A stretch of 64,000 bases of DNA from positions 1-64,000 of the forward strand of contig JASAOO010003467.1 of the NCBI GenBank assembly GCA_030849075.1, given 5' to 3'. Under the pieces are notes generated by a model. That model was not told where the DNA came from. It saw nothing but the letters and a program-made list of their open reading frames with translations, and made no database searches. The stretch is from Zelonia costaricensis (Eukaryota; Euglenozoa; Kinetoplastea; Trypanosomatida; Trypanosomatidae). A program made the position numbers and the translations under genes. The number at the start of each line of letters is the position of its first letter. Within the stretch, counting starts at the first letter, position 1. This document shows, piece after piece, positions 6,621 to 64,000 of the stretch.

Positions 6621-7190
6621 GCTCTTGCTGGCGTACTGGCAGCGTACATGCCCACCTCGAAGCGTGGCGAATGTTTGCTCAAGTGTGTGGGGGGAGGGGA
6701 GGGGACGGGAGGGGGAGCTGCGTCAGTACAGCTGTATGTGTGGGCGACATGTCGCACGTTCGAGAAAAGAGAAAGGCGTGCGATGTGGAGACGTTAGATG
6801 AACGATCCAGAGGTGACAGGACATGCAGCGGGAAGTCGTTGCGGTTGCGATACCGACAGTGCTGCAGCCGTAGGATCTTCTCGCAAGGCGCACACGGCTC
6901 TCAGCGAATCCCACAACTAGGGAGGCAAGGGGCGCATGCACTCACACACGCACTTTGCTTCGAAGTGTTCCGTTGTTCTCGCGGCCACAGACAAGCGGTG
7001 CCGTCCTCGAAAAAAAAAAAACAGAAAAAACAGAAAGGGCAGATAGAGCAGTCGCATGAGCGGGACGCCGACAAGCAGAATCGTCGAGAGAAGAAGCACA
7101 GCTGCACGGCATGACCGGAGCTGCGGCGTACCGGCTCCTGCTCCGCCTCCTCTCTCTCCCTCCCCCTCTCCCCCACGCGTCACGCCACTG
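6621..7190. other. Intergenic spacer, about 0.57 kb, with oligo-A tract
   Basis: The spacer holds an A-run near 7010-7021 followed by two further short A-rich blocks; on the transcribed strand these are T-tracts of the kind that serve as polypyrimidine signals. No coding potential is recognised apart from shadow frames. Confidence 0.55.
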
Positions 7191-19000: not shown

Positions 19001-21598
19001 ACGAGGACCGCAGAAAGGCAACGCAACAACAATAGAAGAGAGATGAAAAAAGCGAGGAAAAGCTGTCACACTCTCAGAGAGGCACACGCGGAGTGACAAC
19101 GAGACAAATACAAACACAAACATGCACACACACACACACAATGACGCGCAGAGTCGAGGCACCGGAGCAGCAGCAAACGCACGCATGCATGCACCCACAC
19201 CAGAAGAGGCGAGAAAGAAAGCGAGGGGAGGAAAGACAAGAAGGAGGTCGTCGAACGTGACGCGAGACGGCGAAAAGCCAGTGGAACGGAGCGAGAGAGA
19301 GAGAAGCAAAAAAAAAGTCGCAACTCTCACGAGGTGAGCACGGCGTCTCCAACGGGCACGGTATACAACTTGAATGGAGAGAGAGCGAGAAGGGAGGTGG
19401 GCTAAGGAGACAGCGGAGATTCGCCATCCGCCACCACCGCGAGAGACTGGGTGTCGCCTGCCGCGTGCCGGGGTGCGTAAACTAGCCGATTTCTCTCCTC
19501 CTTTCCTTTCCCCTGTCAACCCTCCGCCCTCCCACCCTACGTTCGTGCGCGCCTTTCCACAGGCGCATCTCCGCAAACGTGCGCTCCGCCAAGCAGACGC
19601 ATTCATCACGTACCCCTCGCGAGTGGACTGCGCAGTGCAAAATCGTGCCGCGACAGCGACCCTGCGTAGTGTGCGGTGACGCCTGCATACCCCCAGCCTG
19701 GCGTGCAAGTCCTTGCGCGTCACCCGGCACCCGCGCCAAGGCGGGCAACAGATCCGCGCGCGCGCCAAGAGCCACTCACTACGAAGTGGGTGAGGCGGGA
19801 GGAGAAGCGGTGCAGCAACCGAAAATGCATGCGATATGCGACGAAACGCAACACACGCGCACACACACGCAGGCAAAAATCACCAGCCAGCTTGGGACGC
19901 GAGTACAACCGCCAAACAAAGAAAAACTCAGTAGAAGGAATGCGGGGCAGCTGCCCAATGCAGCTGTGACGGACGGACAGAGGAAAGATCCGAGACGAAA
20001 AGAAAACGTTGGGCGGACGCCACCGCCCGCAGGCACCATGGCCCTGGTGGCGACGGCGCTGCAGGCTTGGGAGGGGAGGCGGAGAGCGGAGGCTGGCGGG
20101 CTCCCGCGCGGGTAGCCGGCAGAGACGGGCGGGGGGAGGGGGGAGGAAAGGAAAGGAAAAGGGCAGTCGAACCACACTGAAGGCGCACGCTTGGATCAAC
20201 GCACACGAAGAGAAAGAGGCGGAATAGGGAGAGACAAAGAGGAGGACATGGCAGGAGGGAGGGGAAAAAACAGAAGGGCAAAGACGGGTGGAGAAGGAGG
20301 CCGTCCTTCGACGCACCGCGAGACGCCAACAGGTCACGAGTCCATTGTTGTGGGGGAGTGGCGGATCTGGAGGCAGGGGGGAAAGCAGACCCTCGATGTG
20401 GATTGACCTGGCAGACCAACAAGCCCACACGCACAACACAAAAAAAGGAAACGGAAGCGCACCTCCTTCCTCTCCGGACACGCCGGCTTGAATGCGCTCT
20501 ACGAGAGATCAAGACTCGCCTTGGCAGTGTTTGCCTTTCGCCTCTCCTCACTCCTCACCTCTCCGCCTCGCTAGCTTCCCTACACGTCCCACCCACACTC
20601 AACAACCTCGCCACACGCCCTCACACGTCACCACCACCACCCCGCCTGTATGCGCGTCGTTTCATGGCTGGGGTCCGATGGGCCCTGCAGCACCGTACAC
20701 ACGAGGTGGGGGCGGGGAGGATATGACGCGGATGACGGGGCCGACCACAGTGATGGCTGAGAGGAAACACAACTCAATCTAGACGCAACGAACACACACG
20801 CGACGTGGCAGGGGATAGAGTGACGGGCACAGCGCACGTGAGGGGTGAAAAGAGAAACAGCCAAAAGGCACAAGAGCCGGTGCGAGAGGGGAGGGGGATC
20901 GGGGGAGGGAGGGGGAGGGAGGGGGGAAAGCTGAAGACCAGCAATGGGACCACGTAACGTACGCGCCTACACCGCTACGGTGAATCGATGGGAGACTCCG
21001 CAGGGACAGCCTGAGGATGTTCTCGCTCTTGCGGGGACGAGCGTCAGGGAAGTCGGGGGGGCAGAATGAAAGCGCCACAACGGAGCTTGTGCAAGACGGC
21101 CCTCCCATTTCTCCTCACCTGGGACGGGAGAGGCTGAAAAGTAGAAGAGAAGAAACGGCACGCGATGACGGAGAGTGACACACCCACGCGTAGGTTAGCA
21201 CACGCACAACACACCCGCGTGAGCCAGACAGCATAGAGAAAGGAAGGAGCGCGCAGATGCGCACACGCAGACAGTGTTCGTCTCTCAGTCGACCCCTCGC
21301 CACGTGAGTTGCGCGTGGTGAGTAGGCGCTGCTTGCCGTCCTCTCTGCTCCTGTCTCCTCCATGTGTCACGTTGCGGCTGGACGCGTGTCATTGCATCTC
21401 TGTCATGCACCACGCATTTGCGCCCTTCGTCTGCCTCGCGCGACGGAGAGTGGGGAAGGGTAAAGCTAGCTTTCTTCCCCTACTGTGCGCGAACAAATGC
21501 TTCTGTTCCTGCTTCACCCACGCATTCGCGGGTACATCACAGGCATGACGCACAACCCGCATTTTTTTTTCCTCGCTCTGGTTCGATCATGACCTCTC
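16030..21598. other. Long gene-free stretch, about 5.6 kb
   Basis: No credible gene is found on either strand. The plus strand is strongly purine-rich with many (GA), GGGAGG and CA tracts, so the transcribed strand is pyrimidine-rich, as in trypanosomatid UTRs. Distinct elements are a 16-nt G-run (16538-16553), CA followed by (ACAG)n near 17740-17770, CA blocks near 18220, 18775 and 19125-19140, and G-rich purine blocks near 18960-19000 and 20885-20930. Long frames (for example 18824-19876 minus) are rich in Cys/Val or Arg from repeat translation. It presumably comprises the 5' UTR of the RNASEK-like gene and a very long 3' UTR of the RING gene. Confidence 0.55.
16538..16553 (+). repeat. G homopolymer, 16 nt
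   Basis: An uninterrupted run of 16 G occurs on the plus strand (C on the transcribed strand) within the gene-free stretch. Such runs can form G-quadruplexes and are prone to length errors in sequencing. Confidence 0.85.
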
Positions 21599-35310: not shown

Positions 35311-37884
35311 TCAAGACTCGGTCTCCTCCACCTCCTCCACTGCTGCATCGGCGCCGCTCGCAGTCGCAGCAGCATTCTTGCCGTTGGCGCCCACCAGGGA
35401 TGCGCGCTCGACGTCGTGAATGCCGAAGAATGCCATGAGACCAAACGCGCGGAGGGAGCCGTCGATGGCCAGCTCCAGCTTGTGCCCGGTCAGTGTCGCG
35501 CTCAGGTGCCACGGCCCAGCGGCGGCAGCCTCACCATCGGCGACGATGCCAACAAGGACACCACCCACCTCCACGTCCGAGCTCAGCCGCTCCGTCACCT
35601 CCGCCGCCGCGCTCTCGGACAGTCCATGCTCGCGTGCAGCAGCCTGCAACAGCGCGGCCAGTCGACTGCCCGGCCGCGCGACCGCCGCTGGCTCCTTGTT
35701 GCTCGCCAGGACGAGCAGATCGCTGACACCCAGCACGGCACGCCAGTGTTCGCGCATGTACACGTGGCCATTGCGCAGCAGCTCCTCCAGCATCGCCGCG
35801 TGCGCAGAAACGCGGAAGAGCAGCTTGCGCGCGGTGAAGCGCGGGGCGAGGAAGGAGGCCGACTCCACAACGGCGCGCCAGCGGCACGTCGCGTCGGTGA
35901 GAAACTTGCCGTCGTACGCCTCGAAGGCGCGCACGCCGACCGAGACAACCTCGACCCCCGGCCCTTTGAAGGGTCGCGTGCGCAGCACCATCTCCGCCAG
36001 CGCCGGCGTCACGAGCACAATGCGGCGCACTGGACCGCCGTTGGGGTTCAAGTGGTACATGGGCATTAAGCACGACGCTGACGTCGGCTCTGCCGACGTG
36101 CCAATGCAGCCCGCAAAGTAGGCGAACGTGGCGCCGTCATGACGGTCAAAGCCGTAGAAGGCGGCGATGTTCACCCACGCCTCGTCCTCGGACCCGACAG
36201 GCGCCCACAGCTTGCCCTTCATCCACTGGTTCAGCTTCTGGCGCACCACCACCGGCGCCGTCCAGTCCGGCTGCCGCACCTTGCGAAACGCGGCCACAAA
36301 GAAGCCGCCTGTGTCGTCGCGGTGCGGCAGCACTCGCAGCACCTTTGCGCCGTCGTAGCCGGCCGGCAGCACCGGCTGCTGCAGTCCCTCCACGTTAGGC
36401 GAGCGGATGCCGCCGCTCGAGTGGAACTGAAAGCCCCGCTGGCGGAGAATTGCGTTGACGTCGACGAGCTCGACGCTGTCGCCGAAGAGCTCCAGCCCAG
36501 CACACACCACCTCCTCGTCCTCCTTCGGGTTCATGCTGCACGTGCTGTACACGAGGACGCCGTCGGTCGCCAGCAGGTCGAGGCCACGGCGCAGCAGTGC
36601 CCGCTGCGTCGGCACAAGTGACTTGACGTAGCCAGACGACCATGTTGTTGCGATGGATGGCTCCTTACGAATTGTACCGTCGCCGCTGCACGGGACGTCA
36701 CAGATGATGCGGTCAAACTGGCGCTCGGGTGGCGTGCCATCCGCCTGGGCGGTGGTGGAGGCGGAGTCGTCGACAAAAAGACGCGGCCACTGCACGCCGT
36801 CGCACCGCGTCGTCATGACGTTTGGAGCGTGGTAGCGTTTCAGCCGCGCGGGGAGCGTCTGCGTCGCCTTGACGCGGTCCTTCTCGTTCGCGATCATGAC
36901 GCCGCGGCACACCGCAGCCGACCAGCCGCCACACAGCATCGCGTCGAGCGCCTGCAGCGTCTTGCTGCCCGGGGCAGCGCACATGTCCATGACGCTGTGG
37001 TGCGGCTGCACGTCCAGCACGCTCACCGGGATCGCCGACACCACCTCCTGAAAAGAGACGGCGCTGGCGGTGTGGAGGGTGCGGCACACGTACTCGACAT
37101 GCTTGCGGCTGTGGTAGTCGCTGTTGCTGCACGAGTAGAGGCCGGTGCTAGTGGGACAGGCCGGGACGGGCCGCACCACCGCCGCGACGTCCGGTGTTTG
37201 CAGCAGCCGCATCGCGACAGCCTCGAGTACGCGCTCACTGTGGTGCACACGCAGCGTCATGGGAAGCGGCGTGGAGATGCTCTCCACAAACGCGGACCAC
37301 TCCGAGCTCTCACCGTGGCTGTCCACTCCGTCGGCAGCCCCGGTGGCGTGCCGAGAGGCAGGGGAGGAGGGATCCTCGCCACGCACAATTGCCTCGAAGC
37401 GATTGCCGCGGTAGTACTGCAGCAGCGGTGCTGCCTCGTCCAGCGGGCCCGCGGCGGCGGCGGCGGTGCGGCGGCGCTCGTGCACGCTCACAGGCGCGGC
37501 GGCTTGCGAGAGGGCAAAACACAGCTCCGCCACGTTGATGCTGTCGACAGTGGACTGGCTGCGCGGCACGCGGCGAGTGATGCGCAGGACATCGAAGGCG
37601 CCGTCCGGGCACACCTCCTCGCCCAGCGTCGTGAGCAGCTTTTCGAGACCATCGCCGTAAACCCATGCGTCGCCCGCGTTCGGGTCGCTTTCGGACACCG
37701 TCGTAGGCACCGCAGAGGCCGGCGTGATCGCGCTCGACGTGTCGCTAGCCGGCGCTGCGGTCACGAACTCGCGAACGAGGTAGCTGCGGGCATCCTCGCC
37801 CGCGGGAATGAGCTGGACCAGCTTTATCAGGGCCGCCGGCAGCTGCTCTCGCTCCCGCTGCCGACGTTGCTCGCGACGCTTCAT
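35311..37884 (-). CDS. NSUN2: NSUN2/Trm4-like tRNA (cytosine-5) methyltransferase
   Basis: The start is the ATG at 37882-37884 (MKRREQRRQREREQLPAALI), giving 857 residues; the longer upstream frame has no supported ATG. It is an RsmB/Nop2/Sun family S-adenosylmethionine-dependent RNA m5C methyltransferase. Motif I is MDMCAAPGSKT (about 300-309). Motif IV is DVPCSGDGT (Cys399) and motif VI is YSTCSMNPKEDE (Cys449, the catalytic nucleophile in NSUN2). Both cysteines of the mechanism are present. The basic N-terminus followed by VEYVCRTLHTASAVSFQEVV matches NSUN2 rather than NSUN1/Nop2, and the C-terminal 300 residues (FKGPGVEVVSVGVRAFEAYD) correspond to the NSUN2 PUA-like extension. Expected action is m5C in tRNA, mostly nuclear. 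An insertion in the catalytic core (ASTTAQADGTPPERQ) looks lineage-specific. Confidence 0.88.
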   Translation of the reverse strand: MKRREQRRQREREQLPAALIKLVQLIPAGEDARSYLVREFVTAAPASDTSSAITPASAVPTTVSESDPNAGDAWVYGDGLEKLLTTLGEEVCPDGAFDVLRITRRVPRSQSTVDSINVAELCFALSQAAAPVSVHERRRTAAAAAGPLDEAAPLLQYYRGNRFEAIVRGEDPSSPASRHATGAADGVDSHGESSEWSAFVESISTPLPMTLRVHHSERVLEAVAMRLLQTPDVAAVVRPVPACPTSTGLYSCSNSDYHSRKHVEYVCRTLHTASAVSFQEVVSAIPVSVLDVQPHHSVMDMCAAPGSKTLQALDAMLCGGWSAAVCRGVMIANEKDRVKATQTLPARLKRYHAPNVMTTRCDGVQWPRLFVDDSASTTAQADGTPPERQFDRIICDVPCSGDGTIRKEPSIATTWSSGYVKSLVPTQRALLRRGLDLLATDGVLVYSTCSMNPKEDEEVVCAGLELFGDSVELVDVNAILRQRGFQFHSSGGIRSPNVEGLQQPVLPAGYDGAKVLRVLPHRDDTGGFFVAAFRKVRQPDWTAPVVVRQKLNQWMKGKLWAPVGSEDEAWVNIAAFYGFDRHDGATFAYFAGCIGTSAEPTSASCLMPMYHLNPNGGPVRRIVLVTPALAEMVLRTRPFKGPGVEVVSVGVRAFEAYDGKFLTDATCRWRAVVESASFLAPRFTARKLLFRVSAHAAMLEELLRNGHVYMREHWRAVLGVSDLLVLASNKEPAAVARPGSRLAALLQAAAREHGLSESAAAEVTERLSSDVEVGGVLVGIVADGEAAAAGPWHLSATLTGHKLELAIDGSLRAFGLMAFFGIHDVERASLVGANGKNAAATASGADAAVEEVEETES

Positions 37885-38911
37885 AGGGATGAAAGTGCCT
37901 GCCTGTGTGTGTGTGTGTGTGAGCGACTGTACAGATGGTGCAATCCTCCGGTTCTTTGTGTGCTGACTTGTTCTCCTGTGTGTACTATGTCCAGATATCC
38001 ACGCGCCTTGAAGACCATTTCGGATGGTGAGGAACGCCAGAAAGACGCAAAGAGTGAAGAGATGACAAGCCAGGCAGCATCGCACGGGGGTGCGGTAGAA
38101 CTGGGTTGCCTGAGCAGGCAGGAGGCGGGGAAAGCTGCGCGGTCGTGCTGTGCGAGGCGCAGCACTCCCCCCATCCCTCGACGCCACAAACGCAGGGAAG
38201 TAAGCGGTGGTTCGCTTTCCCCTTTCCGCTTGTCTGGTGCATAGGCAGCAGTGCCGCAAGTACTGAAGCACACGCACACCCATCTCTCACCTGACAGAAA
38301 AGACCTGAGTGAGTTGTGCTCGGTGCAGAGCGGAAAGATGAGTTGCCTGTGATGCACTTGTCCTCCCTCTCCCGCACCGGGAGCGCGTGCTGCGTGCTGC
38401 AACGCGGCGAAGCAGATGAACTTGTTGCCTTTATGTGGTACGTCTTAAGAGTACACGAGCCGGCGGCCTTCACCTCGACCAGTACGACCTTTCGCCTCTG
38501 TCCTGAAAAAAGCGCAGCTCCAGCGTTGTTGCTTTTCCCGCCTCTTCTCTGCAGCAATGTAGGGGTGAGCAGCGGAAGACAGGATGCGATGCAGCCGGTG
38601 GCACAGTGAGAGGCGTGGAATAGAGCGGCGTGCGCCATCAATAAAGGCAAAGCAGAGAGCTGCCGGACGCATCCGGCGTAAAAAAGAAAATAGGCTGTTG
38701 GTCGTCTCGTGCACCGTCCCCACGTGCGACCAGACCTGGACAAATCGACCCGCCTCTCCGAAGTTGCTATTCGAGGCTCGCCAGGGGCGGGGGTGGAATG
38801 AGCAGAGCGAGGAGATGCACATGGGAAGAAAGAACCAGCGTCCACGTCACCCTTCCTCCCAGCACGCAGGCGAACACCGCACGTGCTGGCGCTTACGGGC
38901 GCAACCCTGTG
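37885..38911. other. Intergenic spacer, about 1.0 kb
   Basis: A GT tract at about 37905-37921 lies directly upstream of the NSUN2-like start (CA on the coding strand). The rest is UTR-like with no recognisable gene. Frames overlapping the NSUN2 upstream region lack motifs. Confidence 0.55.
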
Positions 38912-53093: not shown

Positions 53094-55382
53094 TTATGTA
53101 CATTGCAGGACCGTCCTTGAGTTCACCCGCCTCTGAGTGAGCTTGGTGTCGGAAAAAACAGTGAGCTTAAACCCGTTTGGGCACTGCCCGCCACAGCAGT
53201 ACGGCAGCAGAAAGAAATTCTCACCTCCTGTCAAAGACAGCACGGTGCTGTGGACGCAAACAACGCTGCGCTCCTGCTGCGTGGCGAAATGGGGCTTCTC
53301 GACCTCCACAACATCCGAAGAAGAACCTTTCCAGCCGAGCACGCCGATCGGAAACGGCGGGCGATCGTCTGTTGTCTGAGAAAGAGCCAATACCACCCGT
53401 GTGAGGCGCTTGCCGGAGGCGCTACGCAAGCAAAAGATGTCGTCGGAAAATCGCTTCGAGTGAAACGCTGTTGTCCAGCTGGACGAAAACGTCAATGACG
53501 GCATCGCGTCGGGAAGCTGGACTGCGCGGACGCTCTCCACGGAAGCGATGCGGACGGTGAAGCCGGTTGCAGCACGTGATGAAAGAGTCATCTGAAGCCG
53601 CTCCTTTGGGCGCAGGCTGAAAAAAACCGACCCCTCGCTCTCCTTGAAAACGGCTGATTCAAAAAGCGCGTTGGCCTCGCAAATGTCGTAGCGCCGGACG
53701 TCGTCGGCGCTCTCATCACCACCAGACTTGTAGAACAGACACTTTGCGCCACCCTCGACGGGAGACGAGTTGGCAGCAATTACGGACACCATCACCCCGC
53801 TTGACCCGTTGCCCTTGTTCTGAATTGCAAATGTCGGGTTTCGCGCGAACTGTGACGACGCCGACGAGGACTCCGCTGTCACAAAAAAAACGCCAGTCCT
53901 CTTGTGGTCCGACAGTGCCTCTTCAAACGGCCAGAGAATAAGAAAAGCTGTCTCGAAGGTGACCGCAAAGTCCTCAAGCGTCATCCACGAGACGCAATTT
54001 CCGTTCACCTCCTCGGTGTGATAGGGCCCGTACTCGAACGCGTACTTGAGCACTTTCCCGCACGATGGCGCTGCCACCTGGATGAGGTACGCGTAGTGCG
54101 CGCCGTTTTTGGAACAGACATCGGTTTTCAGCACCGCGTAAGGAATTCCACAACACACGCCGCTGTCCTCGAGAGCCTGTCTTTCAATCAAGGTCCGCGG
54201 AATGACACACGCCGCAAGCTTGTGGCCGAGATCAAGCAGGCTGCGAAGGCTATCAAACGCGTCATAAGATGGCATTGACTGACCCATAAGATCTATTTCA
54301 AAGCATGTGCTGCCCGTCAACAGCTCGATGCAGTCGCGCAGTGACAGCTGCTCAGCGTTTCGATACCCGTGCATCACCTTCGCAACCGCCTTTTCGAGAA
54401 CCGCAGCGTGAAACGGTGCACTGCACACGTCGAGCCCGACAACATTGCAGTCGCCGTCGACATATTTGCACGGAATCAAATCATCGACGCAAACCTCAAC
54501 CGGCTGCCCGCCAATGAAGAGACGAAATACGTAAAGCCCAGCCTCTGGATGTCCCTTCAAGAGCAGCGACCGGCTTAGAACGTCGTAGAAGCTCAACACA
54601 TTCAGCGTCGCGCACAGGCTGTGGTTATTGTAAAGCGCAGACGGCTGAAAGCCGGCCCACATGCCACCCCGCTCCGTGCTCCTCCCCCTGCGGTGTGTGC
54701 TATATTCGCCCCAGCGTATAGTCTCTATGCCGCTCACAGGATGGTCGAAGGCTTGCGGCGGAAACGTAGGGTCCGAAAAAAGGTCTTCGTAGGACGCAAC
54801 AAAATCGTCGACAAGCCTTCGCGTCTCCGCCGAGGAAATTGACGGTCCCGTCGAGAGGCTTTCATTTTTGCGCTGGCGGCAAAGAGGCCGTCGCGGAGCC
54901 CCACAAGCCTCGTGCCGCGCGCCCTCGGTGCCCATGGATCGCAAGGACGCAGCATTGAGCTGGTTCAGGTGGACAATGAGCAAAATCTCGTCTGCTATCG
55001 CTGGTGGGATGCAGGTATCTTTCAAATTGATCGAGACAAGGCTGGGGTGCTCAATACAAAGCTGGCGGATAATCGCCGTGCTCACCGCGTCCAACTTTAT
55101 GCGTTGCAAGCTCAGCATCGACACACACGACCGCGGAAGGAACTCTTTCAGCAGCCGCGCCTCGTCGGCACCGATGGATGTGCCATCCAGGACTAGCGAG
55201 TCAATTTCGGGGCGCTCTTCAACGAGCCGCAACACGCATCGAAGGTGTCTACGCGGAACGTAAATGTTGCTCACGTCAAGTCCGGTAACCGCGAGCTCAA
55301 GAGCTTCTCGGAGCTGCTGAAGGGGGCGCTCATTGAGCTCCTTGCAAACAGCAAGGTACGCCTGCTCCCGCGTGGTGATCAT
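53094..55382 (-). CDS. Calpain-like protein with N-terminal LRR-type region, degenerate catalytic triad
   Basis: I choose the ATG at 55380-55382 (MITTREQAYLAVCKELNERP), giving 762 residues; an in-frame ATG at 55521-55523 would add 47 residues but lies before the likely splice acceptor. Residues about 40-145 carry ribonuclease-inhibitor-like leucine-rich repeats (IDSLVLDGTSIGADEARLLK; SMLSLQRIKLDAVSTAIIR; PSLVSINLKDTCIPPAIADE). A calpain cysteine-protease core follows (about 215-475): HSLCATLNVLSF places Cys257 at the nucleophile, FIGGQPVEVCVDDLIPC and GSTCFEIDL are family segments, and NGAHYAYLIQV gives His429. The usual Asn-Pro-Trp-Gly is absent. Calpain beta-sandwich-like regions fill about 510-762 (FARNPTFAIQNKGNGSSGVM; FHSKRFSDDIFCLRSASGKR). 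Catalysis is doubtful; kinetoplastids have many such calpain-like proteins, often tied to cytoskeleton or membranes. Confidence 0.75.
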   Translation of the reverse strand: MITTREQAYLAVCKELNERPLQQLREALELAVTGLDVSNIYVPRRHLRCVLRLVEERPEIDSLVLDGTSIGADEARLLKEFLPRSCVSMLSLQRIKLDAVSTAIIRQLCIEHPSLVSINLKDTCIPPAIADEILLIVHLNQLNAASLRSMGTEGARHEACGAPRRPLCRQRKNESLSTGPSISSAETRRLVDDFVASYEDLFSDPTFPPQAFDHPVSGIETIRWGEYSTHRRGRSTERGGMWAGFQPSALYNNHSLCATLNVLSFYDVLSRSLLLKGHPEAGLYVFRLFIGGQPVEVCVDDLIPCKYVDGDCNVVGLDVCSAPFHAAVLEKAVAKVMHGYRNAEQLSLRDCIELLTGSTCFEIDLMGQSMPSYDAFDSLRSLLDLGHKLAACVIPRTLIERQALEDSGVCCGIPYAVLKTDVCSKNGAHYAYLIQVAAPSCGKVLKYAFEYGPYHTEEVNGNCVSWMTLEDFAVTFETAFLILWPFEEALSDHKRTGVFFVTAESSSASSQFARNPTFAIQNKGNGSSGVMVSVIAANSSPVEGGAKCLFYKSGGDESADDVRRYDICEANALFESAVFKESEGSVFFSLRPKERLQMTLSSRAATGFTVRIASVESVRAVQLPDAMPSLTFSSSWTTAFHSKRFSDDIFCLRSASGKRLTRVVLALSQTTDDRPPFPIGVLGWKGSSSDVVEVEKPHFATQQERSVVCVHSTVLSLTGGENFFLLPYCCGGQCPNGFKLTVFSDTKLTQRRVNSRTVLQCT

Positions 55383-55445
55383 GGCGTTCTTTTTTTTAAT
55401 GCGGTGCCCTGTGCAGTTTTTTTTTTGTTTTTTCCGCGCAGCAGT

Positions 55446-55490
55446 CTTGGAAGTGAAATAAATGACACGAGGGCAAGCGGCAGAATTAGC
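55446..55490 (-). promoter_or_regulatory. Predicted spliced-leader acceptor of the calpain-like gene
   Basis: On the minus strand a pyrimidine-rich stretch (complement of about 55450-55490) ends in CCAAG, with the AG at about 55446-55447. The ATG chosen for the calpain-like protein is 64 nt further on, across an A-rich leader. This supports the start at 55382 over the ATG at 55523. Confidence 0.4.
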
Positions 55491-56300
55491 AAAACTGCAG
55501 ATGGGGTCACAGACAGTGGTCATTGAACGCAATTTCACAGTTTTGGTCAGTACTTGGCGAACTTACAGTCGCAACGCTGTGGCTCGTTAAAGCCCTGGCG
55601 CCTCGGACTTGTGCAACCACAAAAAAAAACACGACAAGCAATGCGTGTCGCTTGAGTGTTTAGCTTTCCGGTCTTTTCACTTTTTCGCTCTCGAAGAAGG
55701 TGGAGCGAATTGTCAGCATGTGCGTAATTCGCAGGTACCTGTCTCCTCGGGCATGGCGTACCACGCGGCTTCACAACCTTACCACACTTTTTGCCAGTTG
55801 CCAGCACACGACAATTGCGACGAAACAAGGTTGCCGCCCGTGATGCAAAAGGTGCCTGGCATCACCAAGGTCGAACCCACGCCCTGTCAAGGTAAAACGC
55901 AGGAGCACCCCCCACCCTTGGAAACCCAACAACCATAAAGGTGAGAAGTACACCACACCGTACGGCAGTACAGCATAAGCTGCAATCAGCCCCCCAGCTC
56001 TGGCACCCGAGCTTCCTGACGTGCCTCGCAAAGCACCTGTCGACAGGCAACTCGCACTTTCCAAAGGACACTGACCCCTCGAAAACACCACAAACAAAGC
56101 GCGTCATCACAGAAGCCGAACCTCGAGCTCGCGGTTGTAGCCAACGCAAGAGAGAAAGCAAATCCCGGCAAAGGCAACCTACCAGAGCACGCCAGCCCCA
56201 AGTCTCAGAGGCAAGACCCCCTCCAGCGATTATTCCCTACTCGCGTGCGCAGGGGAAATGGGCCCCGGCAAAACAACGCGTTGGAGCCAAACAGTAGCGC
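55491..56300. other. Spacer upstream of the last gene of the unit
   Basis: Moderate-composition sequence with an A-run at 55620-55629. Short open frames on both strands have no recognised motif. This is the transition between the AT-richer calpain gene and the GC-rich island. No RNA gene is seen. Confidence 0.5.
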
Positions 56301-56628
56301 AACCAACATCGCCATGACGGAGCTGTGGACACGCAGCCAGCTTGGAGAGGCAACAGCTCTGCGCGCAGTTCCACCCCCCCCCCCGCCCCCACCGTGGTGA
56401 AGAGCATGCGCATGAACAGGCAGGAAAGACCGAAACAGCACCGCCGCCTGGCGCAGGATCCAGAGGGGGTTGTGCGCGCGCTTTCAGATGGGAGGGTTGC
56501 AAAGGGTTTTGCTGTCCAACCGGGCTTCGAAAAGCCCAAAGGCAGGCACGCACGGAGGCCACGGCGGCGCAGAAAGCAACTTGGGAAAACGACTGAAAAC
56601 GCCCCTTGCAGCCGCGAAAGGTGACGCC

Positions 56629-56645
56629 GGGGGGGGGGGGGGGGG
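56629..56645 (+). repeat. G homopolymer, 17 nt
   Basis: The longest homopolymer of the window, inside the GC-rich island. It is a candidate quadruplex and a possible site of assembly length error. Confidence 0.85.
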
Positions 56646-57350
56646 CTGCGTGGTGAAAGAAAGGCCGTCGGGGAAAAGGGCGCCCCCCACCACTACGCAG
56701 ACCGTTTCAGGAACCCCTCAAGTCCCAACACCGGCCGCGCCAGACACGTTAAGCACGTCTTTTCGGCTCCGCTGCGCCGCCCAAAACGCGACAACGCGAG
56801 CGATCCGGATTGAGCGCCTCAAAACTCAGCGCCGTCCGACCCCCGCGCGAGTGCGGGCGCCCTGGGAAAACGGGCCGCGCCCCACGGCTCCACAACTCGA
56901 CAACCCCGCAAGGCGGGGGTGTGAAACCGCGCGCCAAACGCAAATCAGCAAGTTGTTTTACAGTGCCGTTTTCGAAGCAAACGTTGTAGCAGAGCAAGTC
57001 GCGTGTCTTTGGACCTTGCGCTACTAAACCCCACACCTTGGCTCTCTTCAGGTTCCCTCGTGCAAGAAGCTGGGTCGAGACTCAGCCCCCTGCCGTGGGC
57101 GCTAGAAAGAGACCGCACATCAACACAGCGTGGGGACCGCAGCGCAACTTCCGAAAGGAGCGAGAAGCTCGCGAAACGTAGGCACGTTCTTACTGCGGCT
57201 GGTTCAAACGCGGTCACTGCCGGAGGCCGGAGGCCGTAAGCGGCGGACGCCAGACCCGACCCCTTCGCCAACACCGTGCGGGGAGCGACCGCCTCGGAGA
57301 AACGGCGATACCCTGACGGCTTCCCTGCTTTGCGGGTACTGAACCCCATC

Positions 57351-57401
57351 ACCACCTGAGGTGGTTTGGCTTCGTTGGGGAGAGGAGCTCTTAGCTTCCC
57401 C
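57351..57401 (+). repeat. Two adjacent perfect inverted repeats (stem-loop block)
   Basis: The first is ACCACCT-G-AGGTGGT (57351-57365), 7-bp arms. The second has GGGGA (57377-57381) pairing with TCCCC (57397-57401), with an inner GAGCTC palindrome between. Together with a hairpin-capable TCCCTGC/GCGGG pair just upstream (57322-57335) they form a compact structured block. It recalls, loosely, the 5' hallmark of trypanosomatid ingi/L1Tc-type retroposons, which contains an HDV-like ribozyme; this likeness is not demonstrated. Confidence 0.5.
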
Positions 57402-60009
57402 ACCAAGGGTGGGCAGTAGACCTGGAAACCGCGTTGAGGTGCTCCCGTTTTTCAGGCAGGGCGCCGGCTGCGGGAAACAAAAGAATCCCCAGTCCTGCAG
57501 GCGAGGGGGCCTGGTGTTCCCCACCCCGTCCCCTCCTGCGGCGGGCAAGTGGCATGTCAGAGGCGTGCGTCGCCCCCCCCCCTTGGCCGGGGTGCGTTCC
57601 GGCACCCCCGGGCTAACCAGTTTTGTCCCCGTCCCGCGGGTTTGCCGTGGCCGTTGGCGCCTGCAAGCGCCAACACCCCACCAGCGCCGCGTGTCCGGCA
57701 GCACTGAGGCCCGTCCCCCCCCCCCGGGGCCGGTGAGGGGGCTCGAAGAAGTTGGGGCGGGGGCCGTAGGGGATTTCCACGGGCTGGTCTCAGCGGGGCG
57801 GTGTTCGCCGCCCGGCCGGCGGTCAAGGGCCCCCGGTTCCACGTTTTCCGAGCGTCTCTGGCGTTTTCGTTGCTGCTTTCCGGATTTCCGGCGTGGCGGG
57901 GGGGCATCAGGGCCCCCCCCCTGGTGCGCGGGTGGGCGTTCCGGGGAATGGCGGATGCGGTCGGGGCGCCCCGGGCCCCCGTCTCCTGGCGCCCGCAGAG
58001 GAGTGTGTGTGTGGTTTTGTGGTGGCCGGAAAGGATTGCCCCAGGACGCGGCGCGCGAAGCGGCCGAACAAGGAGTCAACTCCCCCGCAACAAGCCCCGC
58101 CGGCATGATGGCTGCGCTACCAGCCCCCGCCGGTGGGGCTTGGTGCGGGGACGTTGGCTCTCTGTCTTGTTTTCTTTCCTAGGGGAGGATGGGCAGCGGT
58201 CTCTCCCTAGCGACCCACATCCCCACCCCGGCGCTTGTTTCGTCCTTCGCCATCGCTACTGGCTTTTCCGATTATGACGGTGCTGCCCCGAACCCCCCCG
58301 TCACGCTGCGCCATCAGCCGTGTTGCTCGGCGAGGCCAGGTGTTTTAAACCACCGGTGTTGCGCAATTCTCTCCCCGAGTTGACCAGGCACCATTCGGGT
58401 TCTAAATCCCTCGCCCCCGCCTGCCCTAGGCGCAAGCCATGTTGACAACGCCTTGTCCAAACTGGGCGGGGTGGGGGGGGGTTGGGGGTCGGGCGTGGAA
58501 GACGCGTCGCGGCATTTTCGGAATGCACACCCAGGAAGCCCCAGGCAGCCGCCTTTCCAAAGAACCTGACAACACCCCCGCTTTCCCGCCGTGCCCCGAT
58601 GGTGTCATCAAGCCCTCTCCGGTGTTTTCGCCTGTTTATGGCTTCAGAACGATCCCAAGACCCCGCTGCAGTGCGAAGGACACAAGAAACACCACCCAAG
58701 TCTTGGATCCCCCGCCCCCCTTCGGGGGTGTCACCCGCCCCCCCCCCACGCCGAAGCCGAGTGTGGGGTGTCGCGTGCATGGGGGGCGGGGGAAGGGAAT
58801 GGTTCATCAACAGCAGCGTTCTCGGGACGAATGTGCCCGTAAAGCTTGCGAACGCCTTGCTCCAATTCGCGGCAGCGTATCCACCGCCTGAAGTTCAACA
58901 TGGGGGGTGCACCCGGCCTGGGGTCGCCCCCCTGCCCAGCGCCCCCGACACCGGCGTGGTTTCGATCAGCGCCTGCTGCTGTCTCGACATGTGCCCCTGG
59001 CATGCCCCAGGCCGAAATGTGCAGGGCGCGGCCCGGCCCGTGTGGGCGTGCGTGGGGGGGGGGGCCGTGCGACAGCGAAGGGCGCCGGGGCTGCGTCTCC
59101 GATGAGGGCGGCTTTCGACGCAGCAGCGGCGCGTCGGCCGCCGGTGTTGCCATTTGGCCCCCCCCGGATGCGGGGCGTTCCGCGGCTCGTTCCGTCGGGG
59201 TGTCAACGGCGACCCCACCCCAGAACGTGGGGCATGCGGCGCCATGCAAATCGGCGCGGGGGGGGGTCACCGCGATGGGGCGCACTCATTTTTCGTGGGA
59301 CGATCCTGGGTAACATGCGGCGGGCTGTGGCGGTCGGGGTGTCCAGTGGATCGGCGTGGTTCGCTGGTGTCGCCCTCGGCTGGGGGGGGGGGGCGTTCCG
59401 GAGGGCCGGCTGCGCCACGGCTAGCAGCGCCCCCGCCTCGTTGGGCGCGCGGGGTGGTGGCTCTGGGGTTCCTGCCTGGCCCCGTCGCACCCGGGGGTGC
59501 GGCGGGGGCAAAAATTCCCGCGCCCCGCCCGGTCCAGTCTTGGCCACTCCTTGGGCCGCCGCGAGGCGCGGCGGCGCCGGCCGGCCCCGCGGCGCGGGGG
59601 GTTTCTCCCGGGGGCCCCAGGCCCCGCCCGAGACGCGGCGCCGCCGCCCCGCCAGCTGGGCGCTGGGCCGCGCCGCGCCCTTCCGGGGTGCCCCGGCGCC
59701 ACCGGCCCCGGGGAAGACGGGGTCGTGCCACAGCTGGTTGCTTGTCCTCCGCGGGGTAGGGGTGCCGCGTGGCGGCGGGGTGTGGGGCTGGGGTGGGGCC
59801 GGCCGTCGTGTGGCCGCCGCGGCCCCCCGCCGGGTCTCCTCGGGCGGGGGGATGCGCCTGGGCCACCATCCTCCCCGCCCCCCACGGGCGCGCGCCGCCC
59901 CGGCTGGCCACCCCCCCGCCGGCCGGCCGCCGTGGTCAGGGGGCAGGGGGCAGGGCGCTGGCTTGTGCCAATCCTCGTCGCGGTTGTGGAAAAGTGATGC
60001 CTCCTCGCG

Positions 60010-60067
60010 GCGTCGCGGCCGTCAGCCTCCCGGCGTCGCGGCCGTCAGCCTCCCGGCGTCGCGGCCC
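60010..60067 (+). repeat. 23-bp tandem repeat, about 2.5 copies
   Basis: The unit begins GGCGTCGCGGCCGTCAG and ends CCTCCC. Two perfect copies (60010-60032, 60033-60055) are followed by a 12-nt partial copy (60056-60067). It lies inside the GC-rich island. Confidence 0.85.
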
Positions 60068-60679
60068 CCGGGCCCATGAGGGGGGTTTCTGTGGCGGGTC
60101 GGGGTTGCGGCTGCTCTCCTCGCGTGCGTTGGGGGGGGGGGGGGGCGCCGGCCGGTCATCGGGTGCGCAGGGCCGCGGGTGGGGTGGGGCCAAAACGTCA
60201 CCCCGTGCCCACCGCCCCAGGCCGCCCGTCCCGCCCGCCCCGGGGGGACCTTGAGGGTGTCCGGGGCCGCCGGGGCGCGTGCGGCCTTGTTACACAACGG
60301 ATCCCCTGTGGCGGCTTCTCAATTTCCCACCGGCCCGTGGGGTCCAACCCCCACCGGCGGCTGGCGGCGCACGCCTCCTCGTGGCCGGGGGGCCGCGTGC
60401 GCGACCTCGGGGCCGCGGGCTTGTGCGTGCCTCACCATGCCGGCCGCGCATGCCGCCCCACCCCCCCTTGGCGAGGAGGCACCCCCATTTTGCAGCGTCG
60501 TGGTGGTGGTGGGGGGGGCTGGAAAGGCGCGTGCCTCGTCCGTGTTGCGTCAAGTTGTGCCCGCATCAGATGCCAACTTGAATTCAAGACACCCCTGACG
60601 CTGGGCCGTGCTCGCCCGCTGCGCGCGTAGCTCTTGGACAGGGGCCTGTGTGGCATCCAGCCGGGTCGCCTCCCCCCAT

Positions 60680-61000
60680 CAAGCGGACAGCCCCGCACCC
60701 GCCTCCGCCTTTGTGGACGGGTCGCGGAGAACCTCTTCCGAGTTCTGTGCTGGCGCGTTCGTGGCCGCGATCGCACCGAGGCGTCCGAGAGCCGTCCCCA
60801 GCTTTTCGCGCAAGTGCACGTGACCGGCGCATTCCCGCTTCACCGCCTGGCGGACCTGGGTCCGGACTGTGGGAGCCATGGTTTCCTCTCGCAGCTGGCG
60901 CGAGCGTCCACTGCGTGTGATTACCTTGAAGGACCCACAGCGTGCGCAGCAGGCATCCACCCATCATGCCCGCCACGCGAGGAGTCGGACGGATAGGCTT
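60680..61000 (+). pseudogene. Possible RNase H-like retroelement remnant (weak)
   Basis: On the plus strand the segment SAFVDGSRRTSSEFCAGAFV (about 60701-60760) resembles the first strand and loop of a retroelement RNase H domain (hydrophobic-x-D-G-S, then G-A-F/V). The frame stops at 60823. A neighbouring frame continues with ACDYLEGPTACAAGI (about 60915-60960), loosely like the later (D)xxxxxxGP segment, which would need a frameshift. The minus strand is also open here for 93 codons (60679-60960). The match is short and could be chance; I report it because the island otherwise has no explanation. Confidence 0.2.
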
Positions 61001-61120
61001 GGGTGGGCCTGGTTGCTCTTGGCAGTGCCTTGCTGTAGGGGGATTGCAACGGCAGGGACACCACGTTGTGGCGAGGGGCTTTGGTGGGTCGGTGGCGTGT
61101 AACAAGACGCTCCGAGTCGC

Positions 61121-62059
61121 ACAGCGCCGGTGGCAGTTGGTCTGCGTAAGTGCATGTCCCCTCCTCTCCAACTCGGCGAGACACGTTTCACTCTCCCTGT
61201 TGGAGAAAGCGAGCTCCTTCTATTCCGCTCGCGAGCTCTGAGAAGGGGGGGAGGGAAGGGAAGCCGATCGCGCGGGCCGGGCGGGCGGGTGCGTTGTACC
61301 GAAAGGAGGTCACACATGTGAAACAAGAAAAAGTGGGAGGGGTGGTGGACGCATGCGGGCAGCCGGAGCAGGCTCTGTCGACCGCAGCCCGCCTACACGC
61401 ACTCACCCAAGCACTTGATAAGTCTCCGGACGCGTCGCGACGCCCACTCCGAGAAAATGGCGGAGAAGCGGGATTTCGGCTGCACACGCTCCCGGCGACC
61501 GTGTTCCGCCAATCATGACGGCATCGCGGAACACGGGGGTGGGTGTGGGGCACTGCTGGTGTGCGTGGCACGGCACATCCACGCACGCACGCTCACGGCG
61601 CCAGGAAAGGTCGCCACTGGGGGAGGAAAGGGGTAGGAAGCGGAGTTCAACATACGAAAAGAAAAAGACAGAGAGAGGGACATGAGAAAGGAGGGCAGCA
61701 CTGCCGCGGTCACGGCCGGTGCCGTGTGCAGGGCGCGCGGAAGGAGTGCAGGAGAGCCCTGGGGTCGGGCTCACGACACAAGACGCGGGGGTGTCTGCGA
61801 GTGCAGTGGGCGACCGCTCCGAGACAGGAGAGGGGAGAAAAGAATCGGAGGAAAGGCGGCGGTGTGCGTGCGGAAGCCGCCGGCGTGGGGATCGCGTGCC
61901 GCCGATGTGCGCAGGGGCCACCCTAACCCCGTCTCGCACGTCCGTGCAGCACAGCGGCGTTCTCGGCGCGGTGAGAGGTTGAGGGAAGTGCGCGAGCAGA
62001 CGGGGGTGACGGGCCAAGTGAGAAGGCGCCGGAAACGGCCGCACGGGTCGCTGGCAGCC
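61121..62059. other. 3' flank of the PSA-like pseudogene
   Basis: Composition and purine-rich plus-strand texture return to those of the ordinary spacers at about 61.1 kb. No gene is recognised; frames here are short and motif-free. It would be the 3' UTR of the surface-antigen pseudogene. Confidence 0.5.
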
Positions 62060-63019
62060 TCACGCCGCCACGACGCCGACTGCTGCGAGGACAAACGCCA
62101 CAACCACCGTCACAGCGGCCGGTCGGGCGCCGCTATCACCCTTCGAATCGCGCGTGGAAAGGTCTGTCAGCGTGTAGATTGCAGCGCATACGACGCACAC
62201 CAAGATCGAGCTGTGACTGCACTGAAGGCAGTTTCGTACCCCGCGGTCGGGTTCAGCCGTCGTGGGCGTGCTTGTCGTGGTTGGGCAGGCGTTCACTGTG
62301 GTGCAGTTGGCCGCGGTCAGTGCCTGGTCCGCTTCGATGGAGGGGAAAGTAGCCGTCTACGCGCTGGGCACGCATCCGCAGAAGTTAATGTTCCTGAGGT
62401 CTACGTGGGTCAAGTCCGGAAAGCTGGCCGCGGCGGGAAGGAAGCGCGACAGCTGATTCGCATCCAGGTCCAGTTCCTCAAGGTTAGCCAGCGATCCCCA
62501 CTCGCCGGGTGGCGTGCGCATGAGGGCGTTGGTATCAGGGTCTATGTTGTCAAGGCGCGTCACCTTTATCCAGCTCGCGGGAAGGGTTCCTGTCCCGTAG
62601 CTGTCGGGGGTGGGGATGGTTATCCCACTGAGAGCCACCCGGGTGCCGTCGGCGCCTGCGCCCAGCTGTAGCGGCGTCACGGGGCCCATCAGTGTCACCA
62701 CACTCCCATCCAGCGAAGCCCCGGCGCTGGAACACGTCACGTAGCTCCAGCCGCAGAAGTCTGTGCCGCTCCATACGCTATACAGAGGCCAGCCCGCCGT
62801 CGCGAAGCTCTGCAGGAAAGCGAGTGTGTTGCTCTGCTGCGTGGCGGTGAAGTCACTGCTCTGCGATCCGTCATCTGCAGAAGCTGAGCAACGCCGCACG
62901 GCAGCGCAGACGAGGAGGAGCCCGCACGCACGCGAGAGTAGAGGGGGGCCGAGAGCGGCCGAGGCGTACAGGAGGAGACAAGGGAGTGCTGAGGACGAGG
63001 GCGAGAGTGGAGTACAGCG
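62060..63019 (-). pseudogene. PSA-2/GP46-type leucine-rich-repeat surface antigen, broken
   Basis: One frame runs from just after a TAA (63020-63022) to a TGA at 62060 but is cut by an in-frame TAG at 62354-62356. Before the stop: a hydrophobic leader (ACGLLLVCAAVRRCSAS), the N-terminal cap SNTLAFLQSFATAGWPLYSV with SGTDFCGWSYVTC, few repeats (GTLPASWIKVTRLDNI; LANLEELDLDANQL) and NFCGCVPSA. After the stop the same frame continues with a Thr-rich stretch (CPTTTSTPTTAEPD) and a terminal hydrophobic tail (AAVTVVVAFVLAAVGVVAA) like a GPI-anchor signal. PSA family members normally have Trp after CGCVPSA/S, so TAG most likely replaced TGG. No ATG occurs in frame upstream. Intact relatives are promastigote surface proteins involved in host interaction and complement resistance. 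Confidence 0.75.
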
Positions 63020-63022
63020 TTA

Positions 63023-64000
63023 GGGGCGGTGGGTGGAGAGCGGGAGGGGCGATCACAGTGTCTGTGCAGGGGTGCGAACGGAGGGAGTGGGGCAGCAAAG
63101 TGAGGGTGGGGTAGAGGGGGGGAGAGGGATGGAAGCGGGGGTGAAGGGGGTTCGTGCCGATGTGCGCATGACGGCTCGCGGGGATGCGGTGTGTGTGCCG
63201 TCTGCTGAGAAGCGGCGCCCCCACACGCGCGGGCCCGACTTTAGCTTGCAAACCCGCAGAACGGATATCGGCAGCACCGCGTGGTGGTAGCATGTCGATG
63301 CACAAGGGGGGTGTCAGCGAAGTGGCTTGTTCAGGAACCGAGACGCCGCCTCGGGAGGAGGTGAGGCCGGGGCGGCCGGCGCCCCCACTTTTTTATCTCG
63401 AGGGCGACAACGGCGTGAAAGCACCAGCAGGCGGGCCTAGGCGAGCCGTGCTGCATCACCTGCTGTGCCCGCGGGTCGCCACACGGCATCGATGTGGCCA
63501 TTCTCTGCCCCGCGTACCGTCAGCGGGGGCGGCGAGCGAGACCAGCACAGGGAGTGTGACACTGCGTGTGGTCGCCTCGAGCCCAGCGGAGACTGCAGGA
63601 GGGGGGTGGGGCGAGAGCCGTGGGCACAGTGCTGGGGCGTGAGGAGAGCAGGACGGCGCACACACAGCAGAAGCACACGCGACGGTGGACGCACCCACAG
63701 CCGAGCGCGAGAGTCAAGTAGGGCATGACGGCGCTGCCTCAGGAGCGCGCGCAAGGCCTCGGCCGCCCGGCCGCCGCAGCAGAGAGCGACCACGCACACA
63801 GGACGCGCTGCCGCGGCGCCGTGCACGGCGTCCACCACAGCACCCCGTCCACCGCAAACGAGACGCACATTCCGCCACTCACAGTGGCGCGCTGTGCCGA
63901 GAGGTCAGCTGGCGCGCAGTCGAACCACAACGCCCACGCTCGGGGCTCATACACACACACACACACACCCAGCGAGAGGGTACCCATGCATTCTCTCAAC
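63023..64000. other. Right flank, no gene recognised
   Basis: Sequence upstream of the PSA-like pseudogene. It contains a purine-rich plus-strand block (63020-63150) and a CA tract at 63951-63968. Frames such as 63437-63868 minus are Arg/Ala-rich and motif-free. A start for the surface antigen in another frame (for example within 63023-63305) is possible through a frameshift but not supported. Confidence 0.5.
63951..63968 (+). repeat. (CA)n tract
   Basis: A short CA dinucleotide repeat near the right edge, of the kind found in the other spacers. Confidence 0.8.

What the first reader, a model, noticed from the sequence alone, without database searches (positions are those of the whole stretch)
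56300..61120. Five-kilobase GC-extreme island between the gene array and the surface-antigen remnant
G+C reaches about 90% over tens of bases, homopolymers of 11-17 nt recur, and no intact gene is recognised. Both edges are fairly sharp: the calpain gene on the left is among the AT-richest parts of the window, and ordinary spacer texture resumes at about 61.1 kb. It sits exactly upstream of the first gene of the minus-strand unit. It may be a decayed transposable element, a transcription-start domain or a centromere-like region.
Basis: partly seen in the sequence, partly recalled or inferred. Interest (0 to 1): 0.75.

Follow-up and report, generated by a model that had tools for sequence, protein, structure and literature searches.

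The report
Candidate centromere island between gene arrays
A gene-free, very GC-rich stretch between two gene arrays of a relative of Leishmania holds an old jumping element, a block shared with other such stretches and a switch in base skew, and is most likely a centromere or early replication origin, though nothing here proves that function.

Summary
The island is real but a mosaic: GC reaches 0.92 over 100 bp (0.82 elsewhere in the window) and 13 of the window's 21 G/C runs of >=8 lie in 4.8 kb; 58.0-59.0 kb is ordinary. Minus-strand genes lie on both sides. Inside are a 505-bp retroposon copy (56953-57457) and a 2.3-kb non-coding unit (58754-61073) shared with contig C603 and partly C498. 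The cumulative G+T skew of the 70-kb contig is lowest at 57,356. Of 14 places read at length, nine (window included) show an A+C-rich to G+T-rich switch in a gene-free island, in convergent, divergent and head-to-tail settings; one is partial, four ordinary. L. major kinetochore/early-origin loci show such switches, and T. cruzi centromeres are GC-rich, retroelement-filled boundaries. Best reading: centromere/early-origin domain (0.55). Against: weak G-skew step here, a larger skew step at 21.3 kb, no census, no kinetochore data; the flanks match different Leishmania chromosomes, so a misjoin is possible.

The parts
53094..55523 (-). calpain-like cysteine peptidase gene, first gene of the left minus-strand array; its 5' end faces the island
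   Evidence: Pfam PF00648, E 3.4e-15; relatives on the L. major 739,748-bp contig and others
56300..61120 (.). the island: gene-free, GC 0.697, 13 G/C runs of 8 or more
56953..57457 (-). retroposon copy, 5' end near 57457, degenerate A-rich 3' end near 56953; no target-site duplication recognised for this copy
   Evidence: 17 rows in the own genome including itself, 68-91% identity, a lower bound; duplications of 12-13 bp in 3 of 11 copies tested
57276..57549 (.). skew switch: left A+C-rich, right G+T-rich; cumulative keto-skew minimum of the whole 70-kb contig at 57,356
58495..58710 (.). degenerate piece of a second interspersed repeat
   Evidence: 60-65% matches to C603, C498 and C708; repeat family seen
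58754..61073 (+). non-coding unit shared with C603:8120-10480, sharp ends
   Evidence: identity per 100 bp 73-98%
59553..59652 (.). GC peak, 0.92 over 100 bp
60224..60888 (+). part of the shared unit also found in C498:30283-30958
   Evidence: 78% over 680 columns; 82% for 60349-60888
62357..62689 (-). 110-aa ORF with coding signal, surface-antigen (leucine-rich-repeat) remnant by eye; right border of the gene-free stretch
   Evidence: hexamer scan; repeat reading by eye, not tested with Pfam

Best explanation
The island is a boundary domain between two head-to-tail polycistronic gene arrays that most likely works as the chromosome's centromere and early-S replication origin, like the one KKT1/acetyl-H3/base J locus per chromosome in Leishmania major. 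Mechanism: chromatin at the gene-free boundary recruits kinetochore and origin factors (inferred); forks leave in both directions from about 57.4 kb, and long-term replication asymmetry makes the left arm A+C-rich and the right arm G+T-rich (skew shown, cause inferred); the domain, being free of genes (shown), collects retroposons (shown), G/C homopolymers (shown) and units that other islands also carry (sharing shown, exchange inferred).
For: Cumulative keto-skew minimum of the whole 70-kb contig at 57,356, unchanged with homopolymers >=5 masked. Step at the island above 99.96% of 100,977 control positions with 2-kb arms. Same switch in eight other gene-free islands: C603, C498, C716, C434, C708, C680, C607, C663, under convergent (C603, with Pfam-supported genes), divergent (C708) and head-to-tail (C434, C663) arrangement. 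Written predictions before fetching: C680 fits well, C708 fits over about 1 kb, C663 fits in keto and T skew, C542 does not fully fit. In eight islands together C-runs lie left and G-runs right of the minimum (34 C and 14 G left, 9 C and 32 G right). Published: this local skew switch marks L. major KKT1 loci whatever the transcription direction (PMC7511235, passages); L. major origins sit at longer boundaries (PMC4612428, passages); T. cruzi centromeres are GC-rich boundaries filled with degenerate retroelements (PMC1868937, passages).
Against: In the window the G-skew step is weak (-0.05 to +0.04 with 2.5-kb arms) and the largest combined T+G step of the contig is at 21.3 kb, not in the island. 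The window's own C/G runs show no polarity (1 C, 1 G left; 5 C, 6 G right). With 2.5-kb arms the window island exceeds 99.3% of control positions only, and one control site at 20.8 kb reaches 0.206 against 0.200 for the island at 2 kb. One search compares an island maximum with single positions, which favours islands; arm borders were set after seeing skews. C708 and C680 steps are near the 97% level. Islands were found through shared repeats, not by census, so one per chromosome is untested. No strand switch here, unlike T. cruzi. No kinetochore, chromatin or replication data for this organism.
Confidence: 0.55

Rival explanations
1. An ordinary, non-centromeric head-to-tail boundary: transcription of the right array ends and that of the left array starts here, and retroposons and homopolymers gather because no mRNA is disturbed.
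For: Genes on both sides are on the minus strand. T skew also switches at ordinary L. major internal acetyl-H3 sites, where G skew does not (PMC7511235, passages), and here the G step is weak. In L. major origins occupy 21% of unit boundaries (PMC4612428, passages), so a random boundary is more often not an origin. Other islands hold tRNA genes, common at boundaries.
Against: The same make-up occurs between convergent genes in C603, where no array starts; the gene-free length (6.8 kb from 55,524 to 62,356) is large; both G and T skew switch clearly in C603, C498, C716 and C434.
Confidence: 0.27
2. Assembly chimera: two chromosome ends or arms were joined in or beside a repeat-bearing island, so the sequence is real but the junction is false.
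For: Left genes have relatives on Leishmania contigs of 0.69-0.76 Mb, the right-arm MIT-domain gene on contigs of 0.84-1.13 Mb; within L. tarentolae, L. braziliensis and Porcisia the two sides are on contigs of different length. The island shares repeats with other contigs.
Against: The longest exact match of the island to the contigs compared (C603, C498, C237 and six retroposon loci) is 71 bp. Skew, runs and repeats of the island are seen in other contigs too. In T. brucei 14 origins (33%) lie at fusion or fission points relative to L. major (PMC4612428, passages), so a real rearrangement at such a place is plausible.
Confidence: 0.1
3. Only a decayed transposable element or nest of them in spacer, with no chromosomal role.
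For: A retroposon copy and a degenerate piece of a second repeat are present.
Against: They cover about 0.7 of 4.8 kb. Copies of the same families occur in ordinary spacer or inside gene arrays without island or switch (C79; C729 and C282). Only 2 reverse-transcriptase matches were found in the genome, neither in an island read here.
Confidence: 0.06

Closest known systems
Leishmania major KKT1/acetyl-H3/base J loci (putative centromere and single early-S origin per chromosome; PMC7511235, PMC4612428, passages only)
   Same: Long gene-free boundary of polycistronic arrays; local negative-to-positive skew switch independent of transcription direction; head-to-tail, convergent and divergent settings all occur
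   Different: Window G-skew step weak and run polarity absent; GC peak above 0.9 and a unit shared between islands, whereas searches for common origin sequences in L. major are reported to have failed; no binding data here
Trypanosoma cruzi centromeric domains of chromosomes 1 and 3 (PMC1868937, passages only)
   Same: GC-rich, gene-free boundary with degenerate retroelement sequence
   Different: Those are strand switches of 11 and 16 kb made mainly of retroelements; here 4.8 kb, head-to-tail, with about 0.7 kb recognised as repeats, and parts shared between islands
SIDER and other short trypanosomatid retroposons (PMC2323293, PMC4748587, passages only) for the 505-bp element
   Same: Non-coding, about 500 bp, A-rich 3' end, target-site duplications in some copies
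   Different: 16 further matches found (lower bound) against 1,858 SIDERs in L. major; 8 of those 16 at 89-91% to the window copy; the 79-bp signature was not aligned to published letters

Membership tests
L. major-type KKT1/early-origin locus | binding of KKT1 with acetyl-H3 and base J | not testable with these tools
   no ChIP data for this organism
L. major-type KKT1/early-origin locus | local T-skew change from negative to positive | tested here: met
   -0.33 to +0.15 (1.5-kb arms); keto minimum of the contig at 57,356
L. major-type KKT1/early-origin locus | local G-skew change from negative to positive | tested here: inconclusive
   window -0.05 to +0.04 (2.5-kb arms); clear in C603, C498, C716, C434
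L. major-type KKT1/early-origin locus | G4 on reverse strand left, forward strand right | tested here: inconclusive
   window motifs 56.0-61.0 kb: weak preference on the right only, runs without polarity; polarity present in the eight islands pooled
L. major-type KKT1/early-origin locus | one per chromosome | not tested
   no chromosome-scale assembly; islands found through shared repeats only
T. cruzi-type centromeric domain | GC-rich gene-free domain between directional gene clusters | tested here: met
T. cruzi-type centromeric domain | transcriptional strand switch | tested here: not met
   minus-strand genes on both sides of the window island
T. [quoted passage not shown]
   about 0.7 of 4.8 kb recognised; origin of the rest unknown
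T. cruzi-type centromeric domain | mitotic stability and topoisomerase-II cleavage | not testable with these tools
   needs experiment
SIDER-type short retroposon (56953-57457) | short non-coding element with A-rich 3' end | tested here: met
   505 bp, A-rich end in most aligned copies, degenerate in the window copy
SIDER-type short retroposon (56953-57457) | target-site duplication | tested here: met
   exact 12-13 bp in 3 of 11 copies tested, 0 of 300 shuffles each; not in the window copy
SIDER-type short retroposon (56953-57457) | 79-bp/Pr77 signature with CGTG at +25 to +28; two tandem signatures for SIDER2 | tested here: inconclusive
   CGCG at +25 to +28 counted by eye in copies (published motif from passages); second signature not significant, 34-345 of 500 shuffles as good in 10 copies; no ribozyme family match for one copy

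The most novel reading that the evidence does not exclude
Non-coding units are passed between centromere/origin islands of different chromosomes: a unit of up to 2.3 kb links C657, C603 and partly C498, and another of 0.8-0.9 kb links C607 with C663, C542 and C752. This lineage would then be evolving shared, sequence-based centromeric DNA in a group where searches for common origin sequences are reported to have failed.
Probability: 0.2. Interest if true: 0.8.

Novelty: new member of a known kind. Interest (0 to 1): 0.55.

Why it matters
Trypanosomatids segregate chromosomes with an unconventional kinetochore, and what marks their centromeres is open. If this reading is right, centromere/origin candidates can be proposed from sequence alone in a relative of Leishmania (gene-free boundary, keto-skew minimum, retroposon and G/C-run content), in all three transcription settings, and the unit shared by three islands can be tested as a determinant or as a record of exchange between centromeres.

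Tried and rejected
Hidden gene: no coding signal, no Pfam match for 9 of 9 ORFs, 2-3 stops in each of six frames of 60333-61073 and gaps of 22, 12, 7 and 1 bp there. Structured RNA: no Rfam match in the window; one chance-level match in a retroposon copy. GC-biased gene conversion as cause of the GC: polarised with C498, A/T to G/C and G/C to A/T changes are 6 and 6 (C657) and 9 and 7 (C603), no bias. SIDER2 double signature: not significant. Repeats as sufficient cause of an island: against it C79, C729, C282. Zelonia costaricensis TCC169E or Endotrypanum monterogeii M907 as source: published assembly figures do not fit (PMC10747355, passages). Position relative to the L. major KKT1 map: not possible, the centromere paper is not held and chromosome 18 was not found in the texts searched. 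Island parts of C716 and C434 matched nothing else in the genome, so unit sharing is not general.

Rows not scored: contigs held only as pieces of about 3 kb (C473, C378, C313, C714, C606, C631, C694, C628, C716:39 kb, C607:46 kb) were called neither island nor control. C56, C362, C752, C244, C481 and C581 were never read. Ten non-coding windows of C708 were counted as 'other' before its switch was known.

Full report
WHAT IS THERE. The window is bases 1-64000 of a 70,321-bp contig (C657) in a 28.67-Mb, 755-contig assembly. A window protein is 68-72% identical to Leishmania, Leptomonas and Novymonas proteins, so the organism is a trypanosomatid near but outside Leishmania; its name was not established. 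Composition and run counts confirm the island, with the corrections in the observation check: the extreme parts are 57.5-58.0 and 59.0-60.5 kb, the left edge is gradual, and minus-strand genes lie on both sides.

ANATOMY. Searches of the organism's own genome split the island. (a) 56953-57457 is a copy of a non-coding element with 17 rows, the window included: 8 of the other 16 at 89-91% identity, one at 82%, seven at 68-74%, some of them partial; the list is a lower bound. The element has an A-rich end in most aligned copies. In 3 of 11 copies tested (C716:39 kb, C603, C313) it is flanked by exact duplications of 12-13 bp, each matched by 0 of 300 shuffles, so the family moved as a retroposon. 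The window copy shows none. (b) 58754-61073 matches C603:8120-10480 with sharp ends; identity per 100 bp is 87-94% on the left, 73-83% in the GC-extreme middle and 88-98% on the right. (c) 60224-60888 also matches C498 at 78% (82% for 60349-60888). (d) 58495-58710 matches a second interspersed repeat at 60-65% (family). The shared unit is non-coding by stops and gap lengths.

THE SKEW SWITCH. In gene arrays here, spacers have a purine bias whose sign follows the strand (mean +0.137 over 118 non-coding 500-bp windows, mostly from minus-strand arrays). In the arms of five islands the keto skew (G+T minus A+C) averages -0.133 on the left (26 windows) and +0.120 on the right (33 windows), purine skew being near zero. 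Arm borders were set after seeing the skews, so these averages are partly circular; the cumulative minimum is not. It falls at 57,356 on the full 70-kb contig, and at 7,091 (C603, 30 kb read), 32,246 (C498, 25 kb), 28,765 (C716, 9 kb) and 26,026 (C434, 10 kb). With homopolymers of 5 or more masked it stays inside the island in 9 of 9 cases; in C542, the tenth, the island border had been set at its own minimum. With 2-kb arms and masking, the largest step in the island exceeds at least 99.96% of 100,977 control positions in 7 of 10 (C657, C603, C498, C716, C434, C607, C663); C708 and C680 are near 97%, C542 at 99.3% without a negative left arm. With 2.5-kb arms the window falls to 99.3%. Comparing an island maximum with single positions favours islands.

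RESULTS AGAINST. In the window the G-skew step is weak (-0.05 to +0.04 with 2.5-kb arms) and the largest combined T+G step of the contig is at 21.3 kb, at a spacer-gene border. With masking and 2-kb arms one control site at 20.8 kb reaches 0.206 against 0.200 for the island. Runs of 8 or more in the window island have no strand polarity (1 C and 1 G left of the minimum, 5 C and 6 G right), although eight islands pooled do (34 C, 14 G left; 9 C, 32 G right; Fisher p 5.6e-6). That pooled test is partly circular, since runs contribute to skew.

PREDICTIONS. From left-arm-like pieces of C708 and C680 I wrote down that the next stretch would be G+T-rich. C680 fits well; C708 fits over about 1 kb only, part of which was already in hand. 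C607 was completed without a written prediction and switches at 56,074, close to the contig end. For C663 and C542 a prediction was written: C663 fits in keto and T skew with a weaker G step and modest GC; C542 lacks the left arm. Two loci fetched for the second repeat, C729 and C282, lie in plus-strand arrays without a switch; C79, with a retroposon copy, and C237 are also ordinary. In all, of 14 places read over 6 kb or more, 9 have the switch (window included), 1 is partial and 4 are ordinary. They were reached through shared repeats and composition, so this is no census.

TRANSCRIPTION SETTING. C603 is convergent with Pfam-supported genes on both sides (FAZ1-like on plus, ABC transporter on minus). 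C434 is head-to-tail, with a POLO-box gene on the left. C708 is divergent and C663 head-to-tail by coding score. C716 looks divergent and C498 convergent by weaker scores. C680 and C607 are known on one side only. A start-only or end-only account does not cover the set.

COMPARISON WITH PRINT. In L. major, KKT1, acetyl-H3 and base J coincide at one locus per chromosome, the early-S replication region; G and T skews change there from negative to positive whatever the surrounding transcription, with G-quadruplexes on the reverse strand to the left and the forward strand to the right (PMC7511235, passages). Origins lie at longer boundaries, common sequences were sought without success, and 14 T. 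brucei origins (33%) lie at fusion or fission points relative to L. major (PMC4612428, passages). A later paper again treats these boundaries as centromeres (PMC12890776, passages). T. cruzi centromeres on chromosomes 1 and 3 are GC-rich strand-switch domains of 11 and 16 kb made mainly of degenerate retroelements (PMC1868937, passages). The window shares position, length, retroposon content, GC excess and T-skew switch, and lacks a strand switch and a clear G-skew step. So it probably works like these loci; I do not file it as a T. cruzi-type domain. Searches for centromeres in related genera listed no paper whose title or opening of the abstract reports such islands; most of those papers were seen as listings only.

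SYNTENY. Relatives of the methyltransferase (35311-38283) and of the calpain lie on contigs of equal length within L. major (739,748 bp), L. mexicana, Leishmania sp. Namibia, L. martiniquensis, L. tarentolae and Leptomonas pyrrhocoris. Their locus tags are 5 apart in Leishmania sp. Namibia (05911, 05906) and L. martiniquensis (06758, 06753), as are the six predicted genes of this window. That 739,748 bp is chromosome 18 is recall. The MIT-domain gene to the right (C657:68536-69522; MIT match below Pfam's cut-off) has relatives on contigs of 0.84-1.13 Mb. The break lies between 55.5 and 68.5 kb: a real rearrangement or an assembly join. The longest exact match of the island to the contigs compared is 71 bp.

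SHARED UNITS. The 2.3-kb unit is in C657 and C603, with 0.5-0.7 kb of it in C498. A different 0.8-0.9-kb stretch of the C607 island matches C663, C752 and C542 at 73-79%. Island parts of C716 and C434 match nothing else. Island sequence is thus partly shared and partly private.

VERDICT. A real and unusual island, best read as a centromere/early-origin boundary domain (0.55), with an ordinary array boundary as the main rival (0.27).

Noticed in passing
C657:55524-68536 (window 55524-64000 and beyond): Synteny break: genes left of the island have relatives on 0.69-0.76-Mb contigs of Leishmania and Leptomonas pyrrhocoris, the MIT-domain gene on the right on 0.84-1.13-Mb contigs.
   Followed up: partly
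C603:6212-6696 and matches in C56, C708, C729, C362, C282, C498: A second interspersed repeat of about 490 bp, 69-76% identical between copies, origin unknown.
   Followed up: partly
C607:52834-53740, C663:60651-61515, C752:118031-118885, C542:41481-42466: A 0.8-0.9-kb stretch of the C607 island shared at 73-79% with three other contigs.
   Followed up: partly
L029 4045-4235 (C498) and L031 1932-2160 (C434): Pairs of tRNA genes (Asp and Glu; Ala and Asp) at the edge of two of the islands.
   Followed up: no
window 20800-21300: The contig's largest combined T+G skew step outside the island, where a long A-rich spacer meets a RING-finger gene.
   Followed up: no
window 59454-60453 against C603: The GC-extreme core of the shared unit is more diverged (73-83%) than its edges (87-98%).
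   Followed up: no
C425:20687-21379 and C556:44258-44782: The only two reverse-transcriptase (PF00078) matches found in this genome.
   Followed up: no
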